Positions 13,535 through 23,029 of a stretch of 53,420 bases of DNA are shown piece after piece; position 1 is the stretch's first letter; each line of letters starts with the position of its first letter. Origin of the DNA: Stenotrophomonas maltophilia (GTDB taxonomy: Bacteria; Pseudomonadota; Gammaproteobacteria; Xanthomonadales; Xanthomonadaceae); contig NZ_RAVT01000005.1 of the NCBI RefSeq assembly GCF_013464915.1, forward strand, positions 44,031-97,450. Direction: 5' to 3'. The notes beneath the pieces are model-generated. The model was given only the letters and a program-made list of their open reading frames with translations, had not been told where the DNA came from and searched no databases. A program made the position numbers and the translations under genes.

Positions 13535-14164
13535 ATGTCGTACTCGCTTCCCCCGCTCCCCTACGCCTACGACGCCCTCGAGCCGCACTTCGATGCGCGC
13601 ACGATGGAGATCCACCACAGCAAGCACCACCAGACCTACGTCAACAACCTCAATGCCGCCGTCGAGCAGGCTGGCCTCGCCGATCAGCCGGTCGAGGCAC
13701 TGATCGCCCAGCTCGATGCGGTGCCCGAGGCGCAGCGCGGCGCCATCCGCAACAACGGCGGCGGCCACGCCAACCACAGCCTGTTCTGGACCGTGCTCAG
13801 CGCCAGCGGTGGCGAACCCGATGATGAACTGGCAGCGGCCATCAACCGCGACCTCGGCGGTTTCGATGCCTTCAAGGACGCCTTCACCAAGGCCGCGCAG
13901 ACCCGCTTCGGCAGCGGCTGGGCCTGGCTGACCAGCGATCGCGATGGCCGCCTGCAGGTGGAAAGCAGCGCCAACCAGGACAGCCCGCTGATGGGTGCAG
14001 CCGCCGGCCTGTCCGGCAACACCCCGATCCTCGCACTGGATGTCTGGGAACACGCCTACTACCTGCACTACCAGAACCGTCGCCCGGACTACATCGGTGC
14101 GTTCTTCAACATCATCAACTGGGCCGAGGTCGGCCGGCGCTACCGCCAGGCCAGGGCCTCATGA
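13535..14164 (+). CDS. sodA: Manganese superoxide dismutase
   Basis: A 209-residue Fe/Mn-family superoxide dismutase converting superoxide to peroxide and oxygen. Metal ligands are in [13 protein letters not shown] (first His), [11 protein letters not shown] (second His) and [18 protein letters not shown] (Asp and third His). The segment [13 protein letters not shown] places the outer-sphere Gln in the position typical of Mn-dependent enzymes. No signal peptide is seen, so it is cytoplasmic. The upstream promoter carries a SoxR-type box. The stop overlaps the next gene (ATGA), giving a three-gene operon with a flavin reductase and a TPR protein. The nearby mntR/mntH locus fits a manganese-dependent enzyme. 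Confidence 0.95.
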
Positions 14165-17399: not shown

Positions 17400-18056
17400 A
17401 TGGCCGCCGCCACCGCCTTGTCGCCGCCCGAAGATGCCAACAGCCCGGCCCGCCGTACGGTGAGCCGCGAGGATCTGCTGGCCGCCGCCCTGAAGTTGAT
17501 CGGGCCGCACCGCAGCCTGTCCACGCTCAGCCTGCGCGAAGTGGCACGCGAGGCCGGCATCGCGCCGAACAGCTTCTACCGGCAGTTCCGCGACATGGAC
17601 GAGCTGGCCGTGGCGCTGATCGATGCGGCCGGCCGCTCGCTGCGCACTATCATCGGCGAGGCCCGCCAGCGCGCCACCTCTACCGCCACCAGCGTGGTAC
17701 GCGTTTCCGTGGAGACTTTCATGGAGCAGCTGCGTGCCGACGACAAGCTGCTGCACGTGCTGCTGCGCGAGGGCGCGGTCGGCTCCGACGACTTCAAGCA
17801 CGCGGTTGAACGCGAGCTGCACTACTTCGAGGAAGAACTGCAGCACGACCTGGTGCGCCTGGCCGCCTTGGATGGCGCGGTGCTGCACGCCCCGGAGCTG
17901 GTGGCCAAGGCCATCACCCGGCTGGTGTTCGCGATGGGCGCCACCGCCATGGACCTGCCGCCGGAGAGGGATCCGGAGCTGGTCGAACAGATCTCCACGA
18001 TGATCCGCATGATCATCGTCGGCGCCCGTACCCCCGCCGCGTTCCGCCGCGGCTGA
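17400..18056 (+). CDS. TetR-family repressor of unsaturated fatty acid genes (FabR/DesT-like)
   Basis: A 218-residue TetR regulator. The helix-turn-helix LSTLSLREVAREAGIAPNSFYRQFRDMDELAVALIDAAGRSLR is very close to E. coli FabR as I remember it, including the SVVRVSVETFM region after it. FabR and DesT sense acyl-CoA saturation and repress unsaturated fatty acid genes. The divergent desaturase/reductase operon and the shared palindrome indicate direct control. Start: the ATG at 17400 is preferred; an ATG at 17370 lies close to the operator and a possible -10. Confidence 0.85.
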   Translation: MAAATALSPPEDANSPARRTVSREDLLAAALKLIGPHRSLSTLSLREVAREAGIAPNSFYRQFRDMDELAVALIDAAGRSLRTIIGEARQRATSTATSVVRVSVETFMEQLRADDKLLHVLLREGAVGSDDFKHAVERELHYFEEELQHDLVRLAALDGAVLHAPELVAKAITRLVFAMGATAMDLPPERDPELVEQISTMIRMIIVGARTPAAFRRG

Positions 18057-18068
18057 CGATCAGGCCCA

Positions 18069-18106
18069 GGGTCGGATCCCTTTCCAAAGGAAAGGGCTCT
18101 GACCCC
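18069..18106. repeat. Dispersed hairpin repeat after the TetR gene
   Basis: CCCTTTCC-AAA-GGAAAGGG (18078-18096) is a perfect stem, and outer bases GGGTC and GACCC extend it. It can terminate the regulator transcript. A degenerate relative lies at 23137-23170. The rest of 18057-18331 holds the operator described next and no gene. Confidence 0.65.
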
Positions 18107-18241
18107 GTCTCCCTGCGCCACACGGCAACGCCATCCTCCGTGCATGACCACCGGCAGGGTTGCGGCTGTTTTATGTAATGTTATAACAAACGCATGATCC
18201 ACCTGGATGGATGCTCCTCACCGAATTGCTGCGGCTTCGTT

Positions 18242-18259
18242 ATATAGCTCTTGCTATAT
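18242..18259. promoter_or_regulatory. MntR-type operator of the TonB receptor gene
   Basis: ATATAGCTCTTGCTATAT is a perfect 7-4-7 inverted repeat. It has the ATAGC-N4-GCTAT architecture that I know from enterobacterial MntR boxes and is repeated upstream of mntH in this window. It lies 73 bases before the receptor start codon. TATATT at 18255-18260 could be the -10. Confidence 0.72.
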
Positions 18260-18331
18260 TGATAAGCCACTGCTTTCATATCCGCCAGCCAGGTCGCCCT
18301 CGCCGCCCTCCCTCCCCAAGGACGACGCCTC

Positions 18332-20491
18332 ATGCCCGTTGCCACACCCCTTTTCCATCGGCTGCCCTTGGCTGCCGCCATCGCCCTGACCCTGCCGCTA
18401 CCCGCGCTCGCCGCCACCCCGCGGCCAACCGAACTGGACCGCGTGCAGGTGAAGGTCAGCACTGCCACCCGCAGCGAACGCCTGCTGTCGGACGTGCCCA
18501 TCCGCACCGAAGTGCTGCGCAAGGAAGACATCGCGCTGCGCGCGGCCACCGACTTCTCGCGGGCCGCCGAGCTGATCAACGGCCTGCGCGTGGAAAGCAA
18601 CTGCCAGAACTGCAACACCAGCGAAGTACAGCTGCTGGGCCTGCCGGGTGCGTACAACCAGCTGTTGTTCGACGGCATCCCGCTGCTGTCCACACTGGGC
18701 AGCGTGTACGGCCTGGAACAGATCCCGGCCGGGTTCGTCGATCGCATCGAAGTGGTCAAGGGCGGTGGCTCGGCGCTGTACGGCCCGGGCGCGGTGGCCG
18801 GTGTGATCAACCTGATCCCACCGCTCCCAGCACGCAGCGGTGGCCATGTGCAGGCCGGCGTGGACGTACTGAAGGGCACGCCGCAGAAGAATGCCGACGT
18901 GCGCCTGGACCTGGTGGCGAAAGACGCCGATGCAGGACTTTCAGTGATTGCCCAGCGCAACTGGAACAGCGGCATCGACTACAACGGTGACGGCTACACC
19001 GAGATCACCCGCAAGAACCTGAAGGTCGGTGGGCTGCAGGCCTGGTATGCGCCCACGCCCGGCACGCGGCTGCGCCTGGACCTGCAGGTGACCGATGAAA
19101 CCCGGCGCGGCGGCAACCGCCTGGACCAGCCCGAATACCTGGCCAACATCGCCGAATCGCTGGATACGAAATACCGCCGCGGCAGCGTGTCGTGGGACCA
19201 GGAAATCAATGCCGACGTCGATTTCCGCCTGGCCTACGCCTTCGCCGATATCGACCGCGACAGTTTCTACGGCGGTCTGGGCGACGTCGTTACCGCCCCC
19301 TCAGCGCCCGGCTATGACCCGTCGCAGCTGGACCCCAACGTGGCCGGCAGCGCGGCCTCGCGTTCGTGGCGCCAGTACGGCCGCACCCACAACCCGCTGC
19401 ACTACATCGACAGCCAGTTGAACTGGCGGCTGGGCGCGCACGCGCTGGCCTTCGGCGTGCAGTACAAGCACGAGGCGCTGCGCGACGACAACCGCACCGG
19501 TGCCGGGCAGCGTATTGCGGTACTCGAGGATGCGACCTTCCACAACCTGGGCGCCTTCATCCAGGACGAGTGGAGCCTGCGCGACAACGTCGACCTGGTA
19601 CTGGGTGCGCGCGTTGACAAGAGCTCGGAGCTGGACAACGCGGTGTTCTCGCCGCGCATCGCACTCGCCTGGCAGGCCACGCCGAACCTGAAGTGGCGGG
19701 CCGGTATCGCCACCGGCTTCCGTGCACCGGAGATCTTTGTCGAGGACGTGCATGTCGATACGCTGGGTGGCGAACAGGTGCGCGTGCGCAACACCGACGG
19801 CCTGAAGGAAGAACGCGCATTGACCACCCTGTTCGGCTTCGACTGGCGGTCGGACCCGGCCAATCCGGTGTGGAGCTGGGATGCCACCGCCTCCTATGCG
19901 CGCATCCGCGACACCTTCGCGCTGGGCGAGATCCAGCGCGGCGATGACGGACAGCTGAGCCAGCTGCGCTACAACGCTTCCGGCTCCAACGTGCTGGGCG
20001 CGGAAACCAATCTCGGTTGGCAGCCATCGCCGCAGTGGCGCCTGACTGCCGGGGCTTCGTGGTACCGCTCGCGCTTCCGTGAACCGCAGCGCATCTTTGA
20101 CGACACCGGCGACGGTGGCGACACCGTCATCGAAAGCCGCGACTACCTGAAGACCCCGCGCTGGACCGGTCTGGCCCAGCTCAGCTGGATGCCCGCCGAG
20201 CCGTGGGAAACCTTCGTCGCGCTGCGCCATACCGGCCCGATGTCGGTACTGAACAACCGGCTGGGCGAGCTGCACCGCACGCGTTCGTTCCTGGTGACCG
20301 ACCTCGGTGCGCGCTGGCACCGCCATCTGGGCGCGCAGGCGCAGCAGGAACTGTCGGTGGCCGCGGGCGTCAAGAACGTGTTCGACCAGCGCCAGAAGGA
20401 TCTGGAAGTGGGCGCGCTGCGAGACAGCGACTACGTCTACGGACCGCGTTTCGCGCGTTCGTGGTACGTCAACCTGCGCTATGCGTTCTGA
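18332..20491 (+). CDS. TonB-dependent receptor, probably for manganese
   Basis: A 719-residue outer-membrane receptor. It has a signal peptide (to about residue 28), a TonB-box-like LDRVQVKVST, a plug domain (about 45-160; IEVVKGGGSALYGPGAVAGVINLI) and a beta-barrel ending in VNLRYAF with terminal Phe. The plug contains NCQNCN; Cys91 and Cys94 are the only cysteines I find in the protein. This CxxC plug motif occurs in a branch of receptors without an assigned substrate that I know of. The MntR-type operator upstream and the linked mntR and mntH argue for manganese (or a manganese complex) as cargo, parallel to rhizobial MnoT. The substrate is an inference; the receptor class is certain. Confidence 0.85.
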   Translation: MPVATPLFHRLPLAAAIALTLPLPALAATPRPTELDRVQVKVSTATRSERLLSDVPIRTEVLRKEDIALRAATDFSRAAELINGLRVESNCQNCNTSEVQLLGLPGAYNQLLFDGIPLLSTLGSVYGLEQIPAGFVDRIEVVKGGGSALYGPGAVAGVINLIPPLPARSGGHVQAGVDVLKGTPQKNADVRLDLVAKDADAGLSVIAQRNWNSGIDYNGDGYTEITRKNLKVGGLQAWYAPTPGTRLRLDLQVTDETRRGGNRLDQPEYLANIAESLDTKYRRGSVSWDQEINADVDFRLAYAFADIDRDSFYGGLGDVVTAPSAPGYDPSQLDPNVAGSAASRSWRQYGRTHNPLHYIDSQLNWRLGAHALAFGVQYKHEALRDDNRTGAGQRIAVLEDATFHNLGAFIQDEWSLRDNVDLVLGARVDKSSELDNAVFSPRIALAWQATPNLKWRAGIATGFRAPEIFVEDVHVDTLGGEQVRVRNTDGLKEERALTTLFGFDWRSDPANPVWSWDATASYARIRDTFALGEIQRGDDGQLSQLRYNASGSNVLGAETNLGWQPSPQWRLTAGASWYRSRFREPQRIFDDTGDGGDTVIESRDYLKTPRWTGLAQLSWMPAEPWETFVALRHTGPMSVLNNRLGELHRTRSFLVTDLGARWHRHLGAQAQQELSVAAGVKNVFDQRQKDLEVGALRDSDYVYGPRFARSWYVNLRYAF

Positions 20492-21041
20492 AGCACTGCG
20501 AACGCTGTTGCTGGCCAGCGCGCTGCTGCTGGCCGTACCGGCGATGGCCACGGACCTGCACGCGCAGGTTTCCGCCTCGTTGATGCGGCCGGAACAGCGC
20601 TCGCTGCGGTCGATGCAGTGGGCGCCGCCACCGAGATTGGTCGCGCTGTACTTCGGTGCCGACTGGTGTGCACCCTGCCACGCCTTCGTACCCACGCTGC
20701 GCAGCGTGCGCGATGCCCTGCGCGATGCGGGCGCCGATACCGAGGTGGTGTACGTCAGTCTGGATGAGAGCGAGAGTGCGCTGCGCCGCTACATGCACGC
20801 GCAGGACATGCCGTGGCCGGTGCTGGACCCGCGGCGCGCCGCGCGCATGCCGGCGCTGCAGGCCCTGGCTGGGCTGGCACCGCCGAATCTGGTGCTGATC
20901 GATGCCGACGGCAAGGTACTGGCCAATGGCTGGCAAGGGCGCCGCTATGAGGGCCTGCAGCCGGTGTTGAAGGAATGGACGAAACAGGCATGTGCGCAGG
21001 AACAGGCGCGCTGCCCGGATGGCGGCATTCAACCCCGGTAA
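20481..21041 (+). CDS. Periplasmic thioredoxin-like protein coupled to the receptor
   Basis: A 186-residue protein with a signal peptide (LLLASALLLAVPAMA, cleavage near 23) and a thioredoxin fold. The redox motif is DWCAPC (Cys63, Cys66) after the strand LVALYFGA, and the cis-Pro region is PPNLVLIDADGKVL. Two more Cys lie near the C-terminus (ACAQEQARC). The ATG at 20481 overlaps the receptor gene by 11 bases, so translation is probably coupled. It would act in the periplasm as a reductase or isomerase, and the CxxC in the receptor plug is an obvious possible substrate. This pairing is inferred from position and motifs. Confidence 0.82.
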   Translation: MRSEALRTLLLASALLLAVPAMATDLHAQVSASLMRPEQRSLRSMQWAPPPRLVALYFGADWCAPCHAFVPTLRSVRDALRDAGADTEVVYVSLDESESALRRYMHAQDMPWPVLDPRRAARMPALQALAGLAPPNLVLIDADGKVLANGWQGRRYEGLQPVLKEWTKQACAQEQARCPDGGIQPR

Positions 21042-21107
21042 CGCCGGGCCATGCCCGGCGAAATGCGTGATGCGGCGACGCGCCCGCCGGGCATCGCCCG
21101 GCGCTAC
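21038..21107. repeat. Inverted pair of GTAG-type palindromic repeats
   Basis: A first hairpin (GTAACGCCGGGCCATGCCC, 21038 on) and an inverted second one (CGCCGGGCATCGCCCGGCG then CTAC, ending 21107) lie between the convergent thioredoxin-like gene and mntR. It probably serves as a bidirectional transcription stop. Confidence 0.78.
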
Positions 21108-21109
21108 CG

Positions 21110-21580
21110 CTACGGCGCCCCACCCTCGGCCTTGCGCACGAACGCTTCGAACAGCGCCAGCGTCTGTTCGCTGACATGGTGCTCGATGCCCTCGGCATCG
21201 CGCCGCGCGGTATCCGGGTCCACGCCCAGCGCCAGCAGGAAACGCTCCACGGTCTGGTGCCGCTGGCGGCTGGCATGGGCCAGCGCCTCGCCTTCCGGGG
21301 TCAGGAACACGCCACGATACGGGCGCTGCACCACCCAGCCATCACGAGCCAGGCGCCGCAGCATCTTCGCCACGGTGGGCTGGGCCACGCCCAGGCGGGT
21401 GGCGATATCGACCTGGCGGGCCTCGCCGCCGTCGGCCAGCAGGTCCGAGATCAGCTCGACATAGTCCTCCACCAGCTCCATCCGGTGCGCCTCGCGCACT
21501 TGCCGGAAGCTCTCGACCTGGCGCTCGGCCTCGATCAAGGGGGTGCTTTTCAGCGATGTCGAATCGTCGGTCCTGCCCAC
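21110..21580 (-). CDS. mntR: Manganese-responsive regulator MntR (DtxR family)
   Basis: A 156-residue metalloregulator. The winged helix ([44 protein letters not shown]) and the C-terminal dimerisation/metal region ([35 protein letters not shown]) follow E. coli MntR almost position by position. With Mn(II) bound it should repress mntH and, from the shared operator, the linked TonB receptor gene. The start is a GTG at 21580, chosen because the N-terminal [30 protein letters not shown] matches MntR. It is divergent from mntH across a 117-base promoter region. Confidence 0.93.
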
Positions 21581-21661
21581 GCCTGCGCCTGTCCTTCCGG
21601 TCTACCCCGGGTTTGAAACTGAATTCTGGACCAGTACCGCGATAAAGACGATTGTTTCACA

Positions 21662-21690
21662 TTGCTAATGACTATAGCAGGAGCTATATT
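21662..21690 (+). promoter_or_regulatory. mntH promoter with MntR-type operator
   Basis: TTGCTA (21662-21667) and TATATT (21685-21690) are 17 bases apart. The inverted repeat TATAGC-AGGA-GCTATA (21673-21688) covers the spacer and -10 and matches the operator at 18242-18259. Transcription would begin within a few bases of the ATG at 21698, giving a leaderless or nearly leaderless mRNA. Confidence 0.75.
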
Positions 21691-21697
21691 CGGACCC

Positions 21698-23029
21698 ATG
21701 AACACCCTGGCGCCCCGCGACCCTTCGGCCTCCACTCCGGCCAGCCTGGGCGCGCTCAATGCTTCGGTGGCGGTCCCTGACAAGGGGCATTGGTGGTTCC
21801 GCCTGCTGGCCTTCCTCGGCCCGGGCTACATGATCTCGGTCGGTTACATGGACCCGGGCAACTGGGCCACCGACCTCGCCGGCGGCTCGCGCTTCGGCTA
21901 CCTGCTGTTGTCGGTCATCCTCATTTCCAACCTGATGGCGGTGATCCTGCAGGCGCTGTCGGCGCGGCTGGGCATCGCCACCGGGATGGACCTGGCCCAG
22001 GCCTGTCGCGCGCGTTACCCGAAGCCGGTGAACCTGGCGCTGTGGGCGCTGTGCGAGGCCGCGATCATCGCCTGCGACCTGGCCGAAGTGATCGGTACCG
22101 CAATCGCGCTGAAGCTGCTGTTCGACCTGCCCCTGCTGTGGGGCGCAGTGATCACCGCACTGGACACGCTTCTGGTACTGCTGTTGATGAACCGCGGTTT
22201 CCGTGCGCTGGAAGCGTTCGTGATCGCATTGCTGATGGTGATCTTCGGCTGCTTCATGGTGCAGATCGCACTGGCCGCGCCACCGGTGATGGAAGTGCTG
22301 GGCGGGTTCATTCCGCGCGCCCAGGTGGTGACCGATCCGCACGCGCTGTACATCGCCATCGGCATCATTGGCGCCACGGTGATGCCGCATAACCTGTACC
22401 TGCATTCGTCCATCGTACAGACCCGCGCGTATCCGCGCACCGATGAGGGCCGTCGCAGCGCCCTGCGCTGGGCGGTGACCGACAGCACCCTCGCGCTGAC
22501 CCTGGCGCTGTTCATCAACGCCAGCATCCTGATCCTGGCCGCAGCGGTGTTCCATGCCAATGGCCGCTTTGATGTGGAAGACATCGAGCAGGCGCACCAG
22601 CTGCTGGCGCCGATGCTGGGCGTGGGCGCGGCGGCGACGTTGTTCGCGATAGCACTGCTCGCCTCGGGCCTGAATTCGACGGTGACCGCCACGCTCGCCG
22701 GCCAGATCGTGATGGAAGGCTTCCTGCACCTGCGCTTGCCGCCGTGGCTGCGGCGGCTGATCACGCGGGCGCTGGCGATCATTCCGGTGGTGGTGGTGAT
22801 CATGCTGTTCGGCGACCAGGGCGCGGTGAAGCTGCTGGTGCTGAGCCAGGTGGTGCTGTCGATGCAGCTGCCGTTTGCGATCATTCCCCTGGTGCGGATC
22901 GTGACCGACAAGGTGACGATGGGCGCGCTGGTGGCGCCACGCTGGCTGGGCGGCATCGCCTGGGTAATCGCGCTGGTGATCGTGGTGCTGAACGTGAAGC
23001 TGCTGGTGGATACCTTCAGCGGCGGATGA
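21698..23029 (+). CDS. mntH: NRAMP-family Mn(II)/H+ symporter MntH
   Basis: A 443-residue inner-membrane transporter with 11 or so hydrophobic segments. The NRAMP signatures are clear: [20 protein letters not shown] in the first segment (metal-coordinating Asp-Pro-Gly-Asn) and [14 protein letters not shown] in the sixth (Met-Pro-His). It imports Mn(II), and to a lesser degree Fe(II), with protons. The ATG at 21698 (MNTLAPRD) follows the promoter/operator directly; the apparent upstream start at 21662 falls within the -35 element. Regulated by the divergent mntR. Confidence 0.95.

What the first reader, a model, noticed from the sequence alone, without database searches (positions are those of the whole stretch)
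18242..23029. MntR-type operator shared by a TonB receptor and mntH: a candidate outer-membrane manganese import system
The 7-4-7 repeat at 18242-18259 and the 6-4-6 repeat at 21673-21688 both have ATAGC-N4-GCTAT symmetry and share nothing else nearby. One precedes the TonB receptor, the other mntH beside mntR. Together with the receptor-thioredoxin pair this makes a compact unit: receptor, periplasmic redox protein, regulator, inner-membrane importer. Manganese TonB receptors are known in rhizobia (MnoT), but I know of none described under MntR in Stenotrophomonas.
Basis: partly seen in the sequence, partly recalled or inferred. Interest (0 to 1): 0.78.

Follow-up and report, generated by a model that had tools for sequence, protein, structure and literature searches.

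The report
MntR-controlled receptor, probably also zinc-controlled

Summary
Observation confirmed: perfect ATAGC-N4-GCTAT palindromes precede the TonB receptor (18242-18259) and mntH (21673-21688); the genome has one more, before mntP. The core interpretation is in print: PMC13217887 (2026) describes this receptor-thioredoxin pair as an MntR module in S. maltophilia, with reporters and an mntR mutant. It found no growth phenotype on deleting either gene, so manganese as cargo is unproven.

New here, as far as my searches show: a Zur-like box at 18174-18188. It is the most conserved 15-mer of the upstream region in 31 distinct Stenotrophomonas promoters and accompanies the MntR box in 33 of 33 receptor-bearing genomes. 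The genome's five other such sites include zigA/merC, a ZnuD-like receptor and a zrgA operon. Of 16 other Lysobacteraceae loci, 11 have the MntR box; the 5 without it have zinc-type neighbours or boxes. In 7 of the 11, mntR faces the receptor; the 4 such genomes searched lack MntH.

Best reading: an outer-membrane Mn/Zn import module under MntR and probably Zur. Zur control is predicted, not measured.

The parts
18174..18188 (.). Predicted Zur box TGTAATGTTATAACA
   Evidence: 12 of 14 specified positions of TGTTATANTATAACA, 1 of 2000 shuffles as good; most conserved 15-mer of 246 upstream windows in 31 distinct Stenotrophomonas promoters; in 33 of 33 genomes
18242..18259 (.). MntR operator of the receptor (perfect 7-4-7 palindrome; core 18244-18257)
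   Evidence: Sequence; 0 of 2000 shuffles as good; conserved in 33 of 33 genomes; published MntR box 75 bp before the start codon in Sm18
18332..20491 (+). TonB-dependent receptor of the CQNC type, 719 aa
   Evidence: PF07715 and PF00593 over cut-off; model pLDDT 89.1, pTM 0.90
18602..18613 (+). Codons of the plug motif CQNC
   Evidence: Both cysteines invariant in 46 relatives, but relatives were gathered partly by a pattern holding this motif
19742..19753 (+). Codons of the invariant E-D-x-H of a barrel loop, possible further metal ligands
   Evidence: E444, D445, H447 of the mature protein invariant in 46 relatives
20481..21041 (+). Periplasmic thioredoxin-fold protein (pTFP), 186 aa, CAPC at 20667-20678, overlaps the receptor gene by 11 bp
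   Evidence: PF13905 50 bits, cut-off 27; start codon read
21110..21580 (-). mntR
   Evidence: NF008273 248.9 bits, cut-off 153
21673..21688 (.). MntR operator of mntH (perfect 6-4-6 palindrome)
   Evidence: Sequence; one of 3 genomic TATAGCN4GCTATA sites
21698..23029 (+). mntH, NRAMP manganese importer
   Evidence: NF001923 647.6 bits, cut-off 430

Best explanation
The receptor and its co-encoded thioredoxin are an outer-membrane import module for scarce divalent metal: manganese and probably also zinc, free or bound to a small ligand. MntR with Mn(II) sits on the palindrome at 18242-18259 and lowers transcription; this is published for strain Sm18 and conserved here. Zur with Zn(II) is predicted to act at 18174-18188, so the promoter would read both metals; this is inferred from the conserved box and from the other genes that carry it. 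The receptor would bind metal at the plug cysteine pair CQNC, perhaps with the invariant E-D-x-H of a barrel loop, and be opened through TonB. The thioredoxin would return the cysteine pair to the thiol form so that metal can be bound or released. Passage of the inner membrane would be by MntH where present and by another carrier where it is absent. Binding site, thioredoxin step, inner-membrane route and cargo are inference.
For: MntR box conserved, 33 of 33 Stenotrophomonas genomes and 11 of 16 other Lysobacteraceae loci; MntR dependence published. In Luteimonas-type genomes G352, G433, G436 and G451 mntR faces the receptor and there is no Nramp gene. MntR homologues also lie beside or near the receptor in Sphingomonas, Caulobacteraceae and Verrucomicrobia loci. 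Zinc side: the Zur-like box, its other genomic sites, and five loci without an MntR box with zigA, merC or a Zur-like box instead; two of those genomes, G108 and G154, have neither MntR nor MntH over the cut-offs. Cysteine pair and E-D-x-H invariant in both kinds of locus.
Against: No zinc response has been measured, and published reporter activity responds to Mn and Fe. Deletion of receptor or thioredoxin gave no growth phenotype. The zinc-type contexts were seen only in Lysobacteraceae; no zigA or merC match was found in the more distant loci. Four Xanthomonas-type loci have the MntR box and only one of them a two-mismatch Zur-like box. The Zur gene scores 125.6 bits against NF008646's cut-off of 167. 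CQNC conservation is partly built in by the search pattern. A Fur input that could explain the iron effect was not found.
Confidence: 0.55

Rival explanations
1. Mn-only importer: the receptor carries manganese alone, as the reader and PMC13217887 suggest, and the Zur site only couples Mn uptake to zinc status.
For: MntR control is published; MntR homologues lie beside the receptor in several phyla; in G352 and G436 the receptor box is the only exact 16-base match in the genome.
Against: G108 and G154 keep the receptor-thioredoxin pair beside zigA without MntR or MntH; G230 has mntR and mntH side by side on another contig while its receptor has no MntR box and lies beside merC and zigA. A cysteine pair is an unusual Mn(II) ligand (general knowledge).
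Confidence: 0.25
2. Zinc receptor: the cargo is zinc, and MntR control is a later or secondary input.
For: Zinc-type neighbours and boxes in five loci; CxxC fits zinc better than manganese (general knowledge).
Against: Published reporter is shut by 80 nM Mn; MntR adjacency reaches well beyond Lysobacteraceae; Luteimonas-type genomes keep mntR facing the receptor although they lack MntH.
Confidence: 0.12
3. The element at 18174-18188 is not a Zur site but a site of another regulator or a promoter part, so control is by MntR and something unknown.
For: Its left half is imperfect (TGTAA); it lies 55 bp upstream of the MntR core, an unusual place for a simple repressor; a leader stretch near 18288-18304 is almost as conserved (0.985 against 0.991), so conservation alone is not special.
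Against: The same motif marks zigA/merC, a ZnuD-like receptor and a zrgA operon in this genome and lies within 50 bp of zigA in three Luteimonas loci; a 14-of-15 form heads the merC-receptor-thioredoxin genes of L021.
Confidence: 0.18
4. The receptor carries a different ligand, for example an iron, copper or organic complex, needed when Mn is scarce.
For: Expression needs Fe limitation too; fold is that of siderophore and B12 receptors.
Against: No Fur-like box above chance; no fit to the copper-receptor or siderophore models over their cut-offs.
Confidence: 0.1

Closest known systems
MntR-regulated TBDR-pTFP module of S. maltophilia Sm18 (PMC13217887, 2026)
   Same: Same gene order, CQNC and CAPC motifs, MntR box about 75 bp before the receptor start, 117-bp mntR-mntH gap, third box at mntP with riboswitch. 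It is the same module.
   Different: The paper's main text has no mention of Zur and describes no zinc test in the parts read; the Zur-like box and the zinc-type relatives are added here. Its figures and supplements were not seen.
Zur-regulated TonB receptors (ZnuD; Caulobacter ZnuK, ZnuL, ZnuM, PMC4176598, passages)
   Same: TonB receptor with a Zur-like box; TGTTA-N5-TAACA sites there, 9 of 10 of these positions here.
   Different: NF038289 (ZnuD) is not among the window receptor's matches; adds an MntR box and a thioredoxin partner.
MnoT of Burkholderia thailandensis (described in the introduction of PMC13217887)
   Same: A TonB-dependent receptor tied to manganese scarcity.
   Different: Works with a secreted Mn-binding protein, TseM; sequence not compared here.
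OprC, TonB-dependent copper receptor
   Same: TonB receptor fold (TMq about 0.66-0.69); metal bound by plug residues (recalled).
   Different: TIGR01778 gives 32.8 bits against a cut-off of 472.45.

Membership tests
MntR regulon | MntR-type operator palindrome before the gene | tested here: met
   18242-18259
MntR regulon | Operator conserved before orthologous receptors | tested here: met
   33 of 33 Stenotrophomonas; 11 of 16 other Lysobacteraceae loci
MntR regulon | Derepression without mntR | not testable with these tools
   Published for Sm18, with partial Mn response left
MntR regulon | Direct MntR binding to the site | not testable with these tools
   No binding assay in the parts of PMC13217887 read
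CQNC TBDR-pTFP module | CQNC in the plug and adjoining CAPC thioredoxin | tested here: met
   18602-18613 and 20667-20678
Zur regulon | Zur box before the gene | tested here: met
   12 of 14 positions, 1 of 2000 shuffles; predicted only
Zur regulon | A Zur gene in the genome | tested here: inconclusive
   PF01475 46.5 bits over its cut-off; NF008646 125.6 bits, under its cut-off of 167
Zur regulon | Zinc- and zur-dependent expression | not testable with these tools
   No data found in searches
ZnuD zinc receptor | Match to NF038289 | tested here: not met
   Not among matches at E 0.001; another gene of this genome matches, at 447.6 bits, under the cut-off of 950
TonB-dependent copper receptor | TIGR01778 over its cut-off | tested here: not met
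   32.8 bits against 472.45
MnoT | Sequence kinship and TseM partner | not tested
   MnoT sequence not fetched

The most novel reading that the evidence does not exclude
The CQNC receptor and its thioredoxin are a redox-gated outer-membrane importer that serves zinc and manganese alike, and in Lysobacteraceae evolution has moved this one module between Zur and MntR: Stenotrophomonas keeps both controls on one promoter, some lineages keep zinc-type control with no MntR or MntH at all, and Luteimonas lineages without MntH keep an MntR facing the receptor as its clearest target.
Probability: 0.45. Interest if true: 0.7.

Novelty: already known. Interest (0 to 1): 0.5.

Why it matters
The published module has no proven cargo, and deleting its genes had no growth phenotype in tests where, in the parts I read, Mn, Fe, peroxide and pH were varied but not zinc. 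A zinc-type control site offers a reason and a simple test: limit zinc, alone and with manganese. If borne out, one receptor promoter would read both Zur and MntR, and one import module would have changed metal regulators within a bacterial family. I found no report of dual Zur and MntR control of a receptor in searches; that is a limited search.

Tried and rejected
Fur control as the source of the published iron effect: the best Fur-pattern matches in the 275-bp upstream region are at chance (615 and 1587 of 2000 shuffles as good).

A second promoter at the Zur-like box: no sigma-70-like promoter was found in 18040-18360. A TATAAC lies inside the box, but the bases a -35 hexamer would take are not conserved. 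Left open.

A plasmid-borne module: 8 plasmid records matched, all of Bacteroidota, at most 30.5% identity. Three neighbourhoods viewed list no gene named as MntR or Zur.

An RNA element at the receptor: no Rfam match at gathering score in the window.

Cargo from structure: an ordinary TonB receptor. I had no coordinates, so the distance from CQNC to E-D-x-H was not measured.

Distant relatives: CxxC plug motifs occur in Bacteroidota receptors (CNVC, CNIC, CQFC, CQSC, CQYC), with a DtxR/MntR-like gene facing L066, L070 and L072 (44-51 bits with a model built here) and a CxxC-type thioredoxin gene after L065, L066, L068 and L073 by my reading. Function uncertain. TTAGCN4GCTAA near the receptor was found by script in L036 and L051 and by eye in L035 and L037; in the other loci with a nearby MntR gene I saw no such box.

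Limits of counts: one search kept 80 of 83 relatives and used patterns, one holding the CQNC motif. One search gave loci for 30 of its 33 matches; the other three upstream regions came. One search examined 395 genomes drawn from a larger group, 25 with a match, 12 of them outside the genus; searches covered those 12. The 16 other Lysobacteraceae loci are those after removing eight repeats shown identical; the rest were not compared all against all. The genome of L023 and those of L024, L025 and L052 were not searched for MntR or MntH. The tree used 24 receptors, without L180; nodes joining zinc- and manganese-type clades are weak (0.54, 0.65, 0.29), so the number of switches is not settled. 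One search scored only 7995 candidates and listed 120 of 1688.

Full report
What is there. Both palindromes are as described: a perfect 7-4-7 at 18242-18259 before a TonB-dependent receptor (18332-20491) and a perfect 6-4-6 at 21673-21688 before mntH (21698-23029). The receptor gene overlaps by 11 bp a periplasmic thioredoxin-fold gene (20481-21041) with a CAPC motif; mntR (21110-21580, minus strand) lies beyond it. Family searches support these names. TATAGCN4GCTATA occurs three times in the 4.65 Mb genome, with one hit of the reversed control: receptor, mntH, and a site on contig C50 before a gene that matches MntP at 209 bits, just under the cut-off of 214, with a yybP-ykoY Mn riboswitch between (47.5 bits). 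Over the 91 genomes of the genus the counts add up to 123 sites against 9 for the control (my sum).

Already in print. PMC13217887 (Argueta-Zepeda and others, 2026; I saw the abstract and outline, parts 1, 3, 4 and 5 of 8 of the text, part 1 of 2 of the methods and a term search, not the figures or supplements) describes the same module in S. maltophilia Sm18: MntR boxes at mntH, mntP and the TBDR-pTFP pair, a CQNC plug motif and a CAPC thioredoxin. The reporter was active only when Mn and Fe were both limiting and was shut by 80 nM Mn. In the mntR deletion it rose, but Mn still lowered it partly, which the authors take as a sign of further inputs. Deleting either gene gave no growth phenotype. 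The paper places MnoT in Burkholderia thailandensis, not rhizobia.

Conservation of the MntR box. Of 91 genus genomes 33 have the receptor at E 1e-60. All 33 have ATAGCN4GCTAT upstream of it, with seven different central tetramers. Outside the genus I count 16 Lysobacteraceae loci (repeats removed): 11 have the exact core box upstream of the receptor, 5 do not (L020, L021, L022, L023, L160).

A second element. In 31 distinct Stenotrophomonas upstream regions the most conserved of 246 15-base windows is 18174-18188, TGTAATGTTATAACA (mean 0.991 against 0.769 for the region). A leader stretch from about 18286 is nearly as conserved (0.985), so conservation alone does not prove a regulator site. 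The element matches TGTTATANTATAACA at 12 of 14 specified positions; 1 of 2000 shuffles does as well, while Fur patterns are at chance. It stands 49-60 bp from the MntR core in 33 of 33 genomes, at seven different distances. In the window's genome six sites have at most two mismatches, control 1. The other five lie between a zigA-type GTPase (NF038288, 576.2 bits, cut-off 600) and a MerC protein; before a ZnuD-like receptor (NF038289, 447.6 bits, cut-off 950); at a receptor followed by a ZrgA zinc protein (PF10986, over cut-off) and ABC genes; and twice in a cluster with a TonB receptor and lasso-peptide genes. In Luteimonas L024, L025 and L052 the motif lies within 50 bp of the start of the zigA match. 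Caulobacter Zur sites printed in PMC4176598 (passages) read TGTTA-N5-TAACA in the four I saw. I therefore call the element a predicted Zur box. The word Zur is absent from the main text of PMC13217887.

Zinc and manganese contexts. Of the five loci without an MntR box, L021, L022 and L160 have zigA beside the receptor (L021 with merC between and a 14-of-15 box); L020 and L023 have boxes with two mismatches; L022 and L160 only with three. The genomes of L022 (G108) and L160 (G154) have no MntR or MntH over the cut-offs. That of L021 (G230) has mntR and mntH side by side on another contig; that of L020 (G411) has MntR but no Nramp. In seven loci (L024, L025, L026, L052, L055, L173, L179) mntR faces the receptor across the box. 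The four such genomes searched (G352, G433, G436, G451) have MntR but no Nramp. In G352 and G436 the receptor box is the only exact 16-base match, no control hit; G433 and G451 have none because one end base differs, and G433 has one control hit. L018, L019, L034 and L180, three of them named Xanthomonas, have the MntR box; only L180 also has a two-mismatch Zur-like box. On a tree of 24 receptors zinc and manganese types interleave, but the joining nodes are weak. Farther out, an MntR homologue faces or lies near the receptor in Sphingomonas, Caulobacteraceae and Verrucomicrobia loci (L028, L030-L033, L035-L037, L051); no zigA or merC match was found in the distant loci searched, many of which are short.

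How it may work. The model is a normal TonB receptor (pLDDT 89.1, pTM 0.90; PirA, Cir, BtuB and PfeA at TMq about 0.7). Among 34 invariant columns of 46 relatives are both plug cysteines with the asparagine after them and E-D-x-H of a barrel loop; the cysteine result is partly built in, since one search pattern held the motif. The plug loop aligns with the loop before the RG strand of PfeA. I infer a metal site there, with the thioredoxin resetting the cysteine pair; the paper suggests a similar reductase role. Shown: MntR control (published) and conservation of both boxes (here). Inferred: Zur control, binding site, redox step, cargo.

Verdict. The Zur-like box and the alternation of zinc and manganese contexts did not turn up in searches (listings, plus passages of PMC6776340, PMC2770081 and PMC4176598). 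They shift the likely cargo from Mn alone towards Mn and Zn, and they give a simple test.

Noticed in passing
L151 (G000 contig C2) 4886-4900 and 13805-13819: Two Zur-like sites in a cluster with a TonB receptor, an ABC exporter, an asparagine-synthase-like cyclase and a lasso peptide B2 protein (NF033537, 58.7 bits, cut-off 33): a possibly zinc-controlled lasso peptide, perhaps a zinc carrier. No matching report in one search.
   Followed up: partly
window 18278-18331: The stretch just before the receptor start is highly conserved in Stenotrophomonas; many relatives have an in-frame ATG 18 codons upstream where the window has ATA. Alternative start or leader function unknown.
   Followed up: no
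L180 and L181 (G400): In one Xanthomonas-type genome the receptor is split into two overlapping frames although the thioredoxin gene and both boxes are present.
   Followed up: no
L072, with L066 and L070: Bacteroidota CxxC-type receptors face a DtxR/MntR-like gene; in L072 a FeoB-like gene (by reading) lies nearby, so iron is possible there.
   Followed up: no
protein P0059: A 411-aa record labelled Rhizopus microsporus is 96% identical to the Stenotrophomonas receptor over 57% of it, most likely bacterial contamination of a fungal assembly.
   Followed up: no
window 13535-14164: A Mn/Fe superoxide dismutase gene lies about 4 kb upstream of the receptor (NF008177 294.3 bits, under its cut-off of 363); no MntR-type palindrome was found there in the genome search.
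   Followed up: no
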